From an uncultured Eubacteriales bacterium (GTDB lineage Bacteria > Bacillota > Clostridia > Oscillospirales > Oscillospiraceae), in NCBI GenBank assembly GCA_900549405.1, contig URNZ01000045.1:1-16818 (forward strand): DNA of 16,818 nucleotides. Direction: 5' to 3'. A program made the position numbers and the translations under genes. Positions 14,348-16,818 of this stretch are shown here, piece after piece. Position 1 is the stretch's first letter, and every line of letters starts with the position of its first letter. Under the pieces are notes generated by a model that saw only the letters and a list, made by a program, of their open reading frames with translations, was not told the origin of the DNA and searched no databases.

Positions 14348-14415
14348 TGGACACCTTGCAACAAAAACTTGATAACTTGAGAGTATATTTTTTCCGAGCG
14401 TCGTTTTTGCGATAA

Positions 14416-14650
14416 CGATTCAAAAAATGGGGGTCATTTTAAATCGTCGAGCCGTATGCGCCGATATGATTCAAAAAACGACGCCGATTTTGAATCGTTT
14501 CGCTCCACGTACAAATATGATTTAAAAAACAGTGCCATTTTTGAATCGTTCTGCCATACACGCAGAAATGGTTTAAAAAGCACCCCCGTTTTTAAATCGT
14601 TGTCGAAAATATCTGCGTATCGGTTCAAAAAATATCCCGATTTTAAGATG
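14416..14650. repeat. Tandem array of five 51-bp palindromic units in a gene-free stretch
   Basis: Within the gene-free stretch 14228-14711, units start at 14416, 14467, 14518, 14569 and 14620 (the last partial and degenerate). Each unit carries a left arm like GATTCAAAA and a right arm like TTTTGAATCGTT about 8-9 bp apart, followed by a variable 20-bp linker. The arms are conserved; the loops and linkers are not. The unit at 14467 pairs perfectly over 9 bp; the others have one mismatch or wobble per stem. As 51 is a multiple of three and the unit is palindromic, both strands show short open frames with a 17-residue periodicity, which probably do not encode proteins. The array ends about 60 bp before the serine recombinase gene. 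Left of it, 14348-14415 holds only an isolated -10-like TATATT (14384-14389). Confidence 0.85.
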
Positions 14651-14668: not shown

Positions 14669-15311
<643 letters not shown>

Positions 15312-15328
15312 GTAAAAAATTCGCAAAA

Positions 15329-15449
15329 GTGTACTTTTACAAACTTTCTCCCGTGTTTTCAACAAATTCAGTTTAGCACTCTTTTATGCTATTTGCAATA
15401 GGATTTCGGGATATTATTTCCTTGATTTTACTGATTTGTAAAAGTACAC
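15329..15449. repeat. 15-bp inverted repeats flanking a 91-bp segment (possible invertible element)
   Basis: GTGTACTTTTACAAA at 15329-15343 recurs as its exact reverse complement at 15435-15449, enclosing 91 bp between the recombinase and the lipoprotein gene. Each arm contains an imperfect palindrome, TGTA-CTTT-TACA, whose central dinucleotide is TT. That is the symmetry expected of serine-invertase crossover sites. The enclosed DNA is AT-rich. An alternative is a pair of operators for one regulator. Confidence 0.6.
15370..15398 (-). promoter_or_regulatory. Leftward promoter inside the inverted-repeat segment
   Basis: Read leftward, TTGCAA (15393-15398), a 17-bp spacer and TAAACT (15370-15375) with an extended TGC match a sigma-A promoter. 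It points away from the lipoprotein gene and into the 3' end of the recombinase gene. No comparable rightward promoter was found inside the segment. Inverting the segment would aim this promoter at ATG 15471. Confidence 0.45.
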
Positions 15450-15470
15450 ATATCAGAACGGAGGAAAAAT

Positions 15471-16454
15471 ATGAAAAGGCAGTTTTCAATTTTATTGACC
15501 TTAGCGGTCACAGCAGCACTACTTGCAGGGTGCGGAAGTACGAGCACCTCAGATAACCCTAACAATGCCGGCAGTTCCAAAAAGGGGGACGTATCGGTAA
15601 CGCTAGGAAACGATTATTCAACAGATAACGGCACTTCGTTCGACCTTTTTAAGGTCGTTACTTCGGGGAAATTACAGTCTGTAAGCGGACAAGGTTCCTA
15701 TTACGAAGCTGACAGCGGATATAATTTCATCGATTTCGTGATCGATCTTACGAATAACGGCACCGAAGATATCTCCGTCAGCGATGATATGGCCGGTTAT
15801 TTTGAAAGCAGCGACGGTACACAGTATAACAACCCTTTGATTGCGGTTGAAGATCGGGACGATTATTTAGACCAATATAGTTCTATTAAACCATTAACGA
15901 CCAGCAAAGTACATATCGGCTATACAGTTCCCACTGACATTACGACAGGAACAGCTTATTTCAGCATCATGGGTGAACTTTATTCTGTGGATTATGACGC
16001 AAGCGTCGATATTTCAAGCAAAACCAGCGTTTCAATGAATCAGGAAATTACAGTTGATGATGTCGCGTCGTTCGAGCTTTTAGGGACAAATTATACCGCG
16101 GATGTCCTGCCCCCTAATACATCCGGCTTCTATACGCATTATTCCATCGACGACCCCTCAAACAACGTATACTTTGTTGTTTACTGCAATCTTACGAACT
16201 ATTCAGCTTCCGCAATCGGTGCCGATGACATGATCTCCATGAAAGCTGTTTTTGACGGAAAATACGAGTACACCGCCAACATGGTCTTAGAGGAAAAGGA
16301 TGGGACCGGCTTTGATTATGCAAGTATAACGAGTATCGATCCGTTGGAGACCAGAAAGGGCGTGTTCATGTTCGATATCCCTAAAAAGGTGCAGGATATG
16401 AATTGTGAGCTGTCTATTTATTTCTATGGCAACGAATATTCTTTCAATGGTTAA
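15471..16454 (+). CDS. DUF4352-like lipoprotein
   Basis: A 327-residue lipoprotein. Residues 1-20 form a lipoprotein signal (MKRQFSILL, hydrophobic core, lipobox LLAGC), so Cys21 would be lipidated and the protein anchored to the outer face of the membrane. A Ser/Asn-rich linker follows (about 22-40), then two immunoglobulin-like DUF4352-type beta domains at about 40-180 and 190-327. The first carries NFIDFVIDLTNNGTEDISV and FESSDGTQYNN; the second carries VYFVVYCNLTNYSASAI. GGAGG at 15460-15464 lies 6 bp before the ATG. Codons often end in A or T, unlike most genes in the window, suggesting horizontal transfer. Its expression may depend on the orientation of the segment at 15329-15449. The role is unknown; a surface or immunity-type binding protein is possible. 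Confidence 0.87.
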   Translation: MKRQFSILLTLAVTAALLAGCGSTSTSDNPNNAGSSKKGDVSVTLGNDYSTDNGTSFDLFKVVTSGKLQSVSGQGSYYEADSGYNFIDFVIDLTNNGTEDISVSDDMAGYFESSDGTQYNNPLIAVEDRDDYLDQYSSIKPLTTSKVHIGYTVPTDITTGTAYFSIMGELYSVDYDASVDISSKTSVSMNQEITVDDVASFELLGTNYTADVLPPNTSGFYTHYSIDDPSNNVYFVVYCNLTNYSASAIGADDMISMKAVFDGKYEYTANMVLEEKDGTGFDYASITSIDPLETRKGVFMFDIPKKVQDMNCELSIYFYGNEYSFNG

Positions 16455-16626: not shown

Positions 16627-16661
16627 GTAGTAAATCGGGTAGTAAAAATGCTGTTTACTAC
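16627..16661. repeat. Short direct and inverted repeats beside the integrase stop (possible att or arm sites)
   Basis: GTAGTAAA occurs at 16627-16634 and 16639-16646 (12-bp period), and its complement TTTACTAC occurs at 16654-16661, forming an 8-bp stem with a 7-base loop. The cluster touches the stop codon of the integrase. Attachment cores and integrase arm-type sites often lie here, so an element boundary is plausible. A weak terminator is the alternative. Confidence 0.45.
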
Positions 16662-16818
16662 TAAGCAATCAGCCGTTCCATTTCTGCCATTGCGCTGTCA
16701 GATGTAGCGTGGGCGTAATAGTTCAGCGTCATAGTGATGTTGGAATGTCCCATGATATACTGCAATGCTTTCGGGTTCATTCCGGCGTTTGCTAAATTGG
16801 TACAGAACGTATGGCGTA
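16661..16818 (-). CDS. Tyrosine-type site-specific integrase, C-terminal fragment
   Basis: Read on the minus strand from the right edge to TAG 16661-16663, the last 52 residues start RHTFCTNLANAGMNPKALQ. They continue with YIMGHSNITMTLNYYAHAT and end EMERLIA. This is the catalytic C-terminus of a phage/ICE integrase: the Arg and His of RHTF, the His of MGHS, and the nucleophile tyrosine in the LNYYAHAT segment. These enzymes insert or excise mobile elements through a 3'-phosphotyrosine link. The gene continues beyond the window, so its length and subfamily (Tn916-like or phage-like) cannot be judged. The 3' end points to the att-like repeats at 16627-16661. Confidence 0.88.
   Translation of the reverse strand, partial: RHTFCTNLANAGMNPKALQYIMGHSNITMTLNYYAHATSDSAMAEMERLIA

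What the first reader, a model, noticed from the sequence alone, without database searches (positions are those of the whole stretch)
15329..15449. Candidate invertible promoter switch controlling a lipoprotein, apparently in the OFF orientation
A perfect 15-bp inverted repeat flanks 91 bp directly between a small serine recombinase and a lipoprotein gene. The best promoter inside (TTGCAA, 17 bp, extended TGC-TAAACT) points left, away from the lipoprotein. Inversion would place it just upstream of the lipoprotein ribosome binding site. Each repeat is itself an imperfect palindrome with a TT centre, as serine-invertase sites are. This would be a compact phase-variation cassette: recombinase, switch and surface protein.
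Basis: partly seen in the sequence, partly recalled or inferred. Interest (0 to 1): 0.72.

Follow-up and report, generated by a model that had tools for sequence, protein, structure and literature searches.

The report
Invertible promoter switch beside serine recombinase
A short DNA segment carrying a promoter sits between two recombination sites of the recombinase gene next door, so that flipping it should switch a surface lipoprotein of a gut bacterium on or off; relatives of this cassette are found in both orientations.

Summary
The perfect 15-bp inverted repeat (15329-15343 / 15435-15449, 91 bp apart) is part of two 26-bp sites (15319-15344, 15434-15459), each a dyad around a non-palindromic central dinucleotide: GT left, AC right, as expected for a small serine recombinase set for inversion. 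A similar pair follows the homologous recombinase in 45 of 80 relatives. A scan blind to the central dinucleotide found pairs in 38 of 73 stretches (window included) and in no control at that score; all 38 had complementary dinucleotides. Site arms co-vary with the recombinase's C-terminal domain. Homologous segments occur in opposite orientation in two families, including an orthologous pair. The window's best promoter points away from the lipoprotein, the usual state of the family (37 of 57 OFF, 7 ON, 13 unclear). Read leftward, the left site folds into a terminator-like hairpin. No flipped copy of this exact locus was seen: no genome is held for the window, no near-identical locus turned up, and no reads were available. 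The kind is known; this is a new member from a broad Clostridia family.

The parts
14712..15311 (+). small serine recombinase (resolvase/invertase family), 199 aa, the likely inverting enzyme
   Evidence: PF00239 E=3.3e-28; best solved relatives are entries named Tn552 DNA-invertase bin3 / Sin, then gamma-delta and Tn3 resolvases and 'DNA-invertase' 4m6f, 3uj3
15319..15344 (+). left crossover site ATTCGCAAAAGT-GT-ACTTTTACAAAC; central dinucleotide 15331-15332; read leftward it is also a terminator-like hairpin
15434..15459 (-). right crossover site ATTTGTAAAAGT-AC-ACATATCAGAAC (+ strand letters), inverted relative to the left site; outer half degenerate; central dinucleotide 15446-15447
15333..15445 (.). 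invertible segment between the two crossover points (113 bp)
   Evidence: site geometry; homologous segments flipped in relatives
15370..15398 (-). promoter inside the segment, TTGCAA-17-TAAACT with extended -10 TGC; now points left (OFF); its -10 ends 25 bp from the left site
   Evidence: not listed by the generic scan
15303..15345 (-). terminator-like structure for leftward transcription: left-site hairpin followed by a T-run
   Evidence: site read leftward -8.3 kcal/mol, then 6 T in 8 nt; right site read rightward -0.5 kcal/mol and 0 T; fold of the leftward RNA
15460..15464 (+). GGAGG ribosome-binding site directly after the right site
   Evidence: sequence
15471..16454 (+). lipoprotein with DUF4352, the gene under switch control
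   Evidence: lipobox LLAGC in the sequence; PF11611 E=1.3e-10

Best explanation
A compact phase-variation cassette. The small serine recombinase at 14712-15311 binds two 26-bp sites in inverted orientation, cuts at their central GT/AC dinucleotides and inverts the 113 bp between them. The segment carries an outward promoter. In the sequenced orientation it fires left and should stop at a hairpin plus T-run formed by the left crossover site, so the lipoprotein is off. After inversion the same promoter lies with its -10 25 bp before the right site, and transcription runs through that site (whose outer half is degenerate and hardly folds) into the ribosome-binding site and the lipoprotein gene. 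Shown by sequence comparison: the site pairs, their linkage to and co-variation with the recombinase, and flipped homologous segments in relatives. Inferred: that this exact locus flips, that the promoter is active, and that the left site terminates.
For: Site pairs downstream of the recombinase in 45 of 80 relatives. With scoring blind to the central dinucleotide, pairs scoring 50 or more in 38 of 73 stretches (window included) against 0 of 73 upstream, 0 of 70 further downstream and 0 of 73 shuffled; all 38 have complementary dinucleotides, six of them not GT/AC (AA/TT 2, AC/GT 2, CT/AG 1, AT/AT 1). Half-site sequence tracks the C-terminal domain (r=0.51, 0 of 2000 permutations reach it) more than the catalytic domain (r=0.18). 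Centre-to-centre spacings sit near whole helical turns (R 0.76-0.80 at 10.5 bp after thinning recombinases at 75-80% identity; 13 distinct spacings alone, Rayleigh p 0.0012). Among 69 interiors 41 of 2346 pairs score above every shuffled pair, 12 of them only when inverted, with no conflict in orientation: L063 and L172 against nine loci (six by direct pairs), L028 against six (one direct pair, L010). L010/L028: recombinases 78% identical, downstream proteins 70%, interiors 64/84 identical after inversion. Mirrored geometry: -10 to site 26-27 bp in L063/L172 (ON), 24-29 bp in 23 of 38 OFF loci. Contigs end within 300 bp downstream of the recombinase in 7 of 80 loci, upstream in 0 of 80; 1.19 expected per side.
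Against: No flipped copy of this locus was found; its interior has no recognisable homologue (best score 16), and 300 genomes of the nearest family gave no near-identical locus (best-scoring match 75%; two candidates scored per genome). 35 of 80 relatives gave no accepted pair (8 of these had too little or masked sequence downstream), and pairs are scattered over the recombinase tree (30 changes, shuffled mean 38.6). The window's promoter is weak by plain consensus. 13 of 57 interiors give no clear orientation; of the 7 scored ON, three (L052, L068, L162) rest on a match overlapping the left site and L066 on one in mid-segment, so only L063, L172 and L098 have a promoter near the right site. 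The co-variation test does not remove relatedness. Contig ends could also come from multi-copy cassettes.
Confidence: 0.9

Rival explanations
1. The two arms are paired operators for a transcription factor (looping), with no DNA inversion.
For: Dyad sites flanking a promoter look like operators; no flip of the window itself was seen.
Against: Central dinucleotides are complementary in 38 of 38 pairs found blind to them, the variant types changing together; arms co-vary with the adjacent recombinase's C-terminal domain; homologous segments occur inverted between the sites.
Confidence: 0.04
2. A former switch, now frozen: the recombinase or a site has lost function and the lipoprotein is permanently off or driven from elsewhere.
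For: The outer half of the right site is degenerate (6 of 12 dyad pairs); the evidence of flipping comes from relatives only.
Against: The recombinase frame is intact; a less palindromic gene-side site is common in the family (left more palindromic in 46 of 65, right in 11, 8 ties), also in loci of families seen in both orientations (L063, L010, L028; L172, L173).
Confidence: 0.05
3. The sites are ends of a mobile element (integration or excision by the recombinase) rather than a promoter switch.
For: Cargo genes differ between loci; an integrase C-terminus lies at the window's right edge.
Against: The sites enclose only 113 bp; they are inverted, which gives inversion and not excision; spacing is constrained; the integrase fragment is about 1.2 kb away and of another family (PF00589).
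Confidence: 0.01

Closest known systems
Hin/Gin-type DNA invertases and the Salmonella flagellar switch (recalled; one passage on Hin seen in PMC11868660)
   Same: Serine recombinase encoded beside the switch, inverted dyad sites with a 2-bp central overlap, promoter inside the segment
   Different: Segment here is 115 bp centre to centre; no enhancer or Fis partner was looked for; the best-scoring solved relatives are Sin/Bin3 and resolvases, ahead of the entries named DNA-invertase 4m6f and 3uj3
Invertons of gut bacteria (hCom2 survey PMC11892184: passages, section 8)
   Same: Short promoter segments between inverted repeats, near surface genes and an invertase
   Different: There the most significant link, for a Clostridia inverton group, is to a tyrosine-type recombinase; the main text holds neither 'serine recombinase' nor 'resolvase'. 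Supplements could not be read
Clostridioides difficile flagellar switch (search listing and starts of abstracts only)
   Same: Inversion upstream of a surface locus in a Clostridia species
   Different: Run by RecV, a tyrosine recombinase (recalled)
Bacteroides Mpi-type serine invertase system (recalled)
   Same: Serine recombinase inverting short promoter segments
   Different: One enzyme serving many distant promoters; here the recombinases carry their own adjacent switch

Membership tests
small serine recombinases (resolvase/invertase) | N-terminal resolvase catalytic domain | tested here: met
   PF00239, residues 3-146, E=3.3e-28
small serine recombinases (resolvase/invertase) | short dyad crossover site with a 2-bp central overlap (recalled definition) | tested here: met
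   26-bp sites, complementary central dinucleotides in 38 of 38 blind pairs; cleavage itself not testable here
inverton (invertible promoter) | inverted repeat flanking a promoter-bearing segment | tested here: met
   promoter weak by plain consensus
inverton (invertible promoter) | both orientations occur | tested here: inconclusive
   met for relatives; not testable for this locus without reads
Hin/Gin enhancer-dependent invertases | recombinational enhancer bound by Fis | not tested
   no search for an enhancer was made
tyrosine-recombinase invertons | adjacent tyrosine recombinase acting on the repeats | tested here: not met
   the adjacent enzyme is PF00239 and its C-terminal domain tracks the sites
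bacterial lipoprotein | signal peptide with lipobox cysteine | tested here: met
   LLAGC near the N-terminus (crude pattern)

The most novel reading that the evidence does not exclude
A default-OFF design in which the recombinase-proximal crossover site doubles as a transcription terminator and the gene-proximal site is kept degenerate so that the ON transcript stays open. This would make the switch tight in one state; together with biased inversion it would explain why most assembled genomes are caught OFF. The module would have been recruited many times for different cargo, from surface proteins to methylases and TnpB-like proteins without the usual catalytic residues.
Probability: 0.3. Interest if true: 0.65.

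Novelty: new member of a known kind. Interest (0 to 1): 0.52.

Why it matters
Here is a recognisable recombinase-plus-switch module of gut Clostridia with predictable sites, so orientation can be scored in any assembly or read set, and with an OFF bias that can be tested. The cargo (lipoproteins, repeat-rich surface proteins, sugar transferases, DNA methylases, TnpB-like proteins) suggests what these bacteria keep switchable.

Tried and rejected
Considered and rejected: paired operators, mobile-element ends, a tyrosine-recombinase switch (see rivals). Looked for a near-identical locus in 300 genomes of the family of G019, the best of 29 genomes by TsaD, and for the lipoprotein in 400: 57 of 400 genomes had some match, three near full length at 33-37% identity; of the 25 loci fetched only L221 holds a recombinase, about 1 kb away on the other strand. 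Viral contigs were searched for flipped near-identical copies: 58 of the 78 loci were given to the scan (some with little sequence downstream), 4 had site pairs, none of them near-identical to another. Antisense silencing of the recombinase by the leftward promoter was put aside because a terminator-like hairpin lies between them in the window. Hairpin plus T-run is leftward in 15 of 65 and rightward in 7 of 65 loci, so that reading is clear in the window but not general. A single origin of the site-bearing recombinases is not supported. The first inversion model was off by one base and was redone.

Rows dropped. From: L062 (no core) and L078 (out-of-frame match of what one search suggests is a real pair). 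From the 65-row set: 12 duplicate loci, L050 (its translated recombinase stretch was filtered out, apparently for a stop), and L201, L202, L208 (recombinase cut by a contig end). From: 8 of 81 loci, too short or masked. From: three duplicates. Complementarity of 65 of 65 is partly built into that scan; use, where at the looser score of 45 the shuffled set gave 3 of 73. The jitter control (0 of 5000) is weak, since jitter of a full period removes any phase. Promoter weights are recalled textbook values.

Full report
Observation. It is the only perfect 15-bp inverted repeat with a 20-300 bp gap in the window; 1 of 300 Markov copies of the window and 0 of 20,000 copies of the intergenic stretch gave one. 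To its left is a 199-aa small serine recombinase (PF00239), to its right a lipoprotein with DUF4352.

What the repeat is. In 45 of the 80 a similar pair of sites lies downstream of the recombinase. Each site is 26 bp: a 12-bp arm, a central dinucleotide, and the complementary arm. In the window these are ATTCGCAAAAGT-GT-ACTTTTACAAAC and ATTTGTAAAAGT-AC-ACATATCAGAAC. A second scan that ignored the central dinucleotide found pairs scoring 50 or more in 38 of 73 stretches (window included) and in none of 73 upstream, 70 distal and 73 shuffled controls; at a score of 45 the numbers are 47 of 73 against 0, 0 and 3. All 38 had complementary dinucleotides, though six were not GT/AC. Strand exchange with a 2-bp overlap requires that; an operator pair would not.

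Whose sites they are. Relatedness among loci is not removed by this test. Site spacings cluster near whole helical turns, also after thinning related recombinases.

Does it flip. A DNA search with an ON-looking locus (L063) in the 25 genomes of its genus returned, in G058, in two places of G340 and in a paralogue of L063's own genome G026, the recombinase on one strand and the segment on the other; G330 (L172) is collinear with L063. Over 69 interiors, 41 of 2346 pairs scored above every shuffled pair; 29 align directly and 12 only after inversion, and the orientations are mutually consistent. In one family L063 and L172 are flipped against nine loci, six of them by direct pairs. In another L028 is flipped against six, by its direct pair with L010; these two are orthologous in recombinase (78%) and downstream protein (70%), and their interiors match at 64 of 84 positions after inversion. 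A third, weaker case (L043 against L015; 1 of 2000 shuffles as good) did not pass the stricter test. These pairs are not independent events. The window's own interior matches nothing.

Which way it points. With a simple sigma-70 score the best promoter points away from the gene in 37 of 57 loci (eight TnpB-cargo loci left out), towards it in 7, and is unclear in 13. Of 38 OFF loci (these 37 and L010) 23 have the -10 end 24-29 bp from the left site and 8 have it at 14-17 bp; L063 and L172 have the mirror image, 26-27 bp from the right site, and L098 lies at 32 bp. The other four ON calls lack that geometry. The window is OFF (10.1 against 5.25), but its promoter matches the plain consensus in only 8 of 12 positions and the generic scan did not list it. 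Read leftward, its left site folds (-8.3 kcal/mol) and is followed by 6 T in 8 bases; the right site read rightward hardly folds (-0.5). Across 65 loci the left site is more palindromic than the right in 46, less in 11, equal in 8; the hairpin-plus-T rule is met leftward in 15 and rightward in 7.

Indirect sign. Contigs end within 300 bp downstream of the recombinase in 7 of 80 loci and upstream in none, with 1.19 expected per side. Mixed orientations in a sample could break assemblies there, but so could repeated cassettes.

Cargo. First genes downstream differ widely. Thirty of them were scanned against Pfam: eight TnpB-family proteins, a family 2 glycosyltransferase, a sugar transferase, a cytosine-5 methylase, an Eco57I-type methylase, a TadZ-like protein, leucine-rich-repeat, Ig-like and collagen-repeat proteins, and several without a match. 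By a crude pattern 6 of 68 have a lipobox (L038, L073, L101, L182, L201 and the window) and 21 more a signal-like N-terminus.

Known or new. The kind is known: phase variation by inversion of a promoter. All ten searches of the paper library listed no paper whose title or shown abstract describes this serine-recombinase family in Clostridia. Jiang 2019, Chanin 2024 and the Johnson review were not held, so absence from print is not claimed. The hCom2 inverton survey links its main Clostridia group to a tyrosine recombinase.

Verdict. An invertible promoter switch, with high confidence in the kind and by inference for this locus; new member of a known kind.

Noticed in passing
window 14413-14650: Four dyads of about 30 bp (GATTCAAAAAA ... 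TTTTGAATCGTT) and a partial fifth, at a 51-bp period, in the gap upstream of the recombinase; one strict pattern found no such array in any other locus held at the time. Possibly operators of the recombinase gene.
   Followed up: partly
L006, L010, L015, L024, L028, L043, L181, L185: Switch cargo of the TnpB family. In L010, aligned to a solved TnpB-type nuclease, the three acidic positions that are catalytic in TnpB (recalled) appear replaced; the alignment of the eight suggests the same for the others, and L185 lacks part of the region. Probably nuclease-dead, as in TldR regulators (passage seen in PMC13418256). No guide RNA was looked for.
   Followed up: partly
window 16661-16816 (- strand): C-terminal end of a phage-integrase family protein (PF00589) cut by the window's edge; the lipoprotein stretch has 40% GC against 60% overall and may be part of an inserted element.
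   Followed up: partly
genomes G026, G058, G151, G330, G340: Four to eight matches per genome to the L063 cassette (not all of them recombinase), some with their own switch and different cargo: a multi-copy set.
   Followed up: partly
L076, L077, L057: DNA methylases (L076 Eco57I-type, L077 cytosine-5) and an AMP-binding enzyme (L057) as switch cargo, suggesting phase-variable DNA modification.
   Followed up: no
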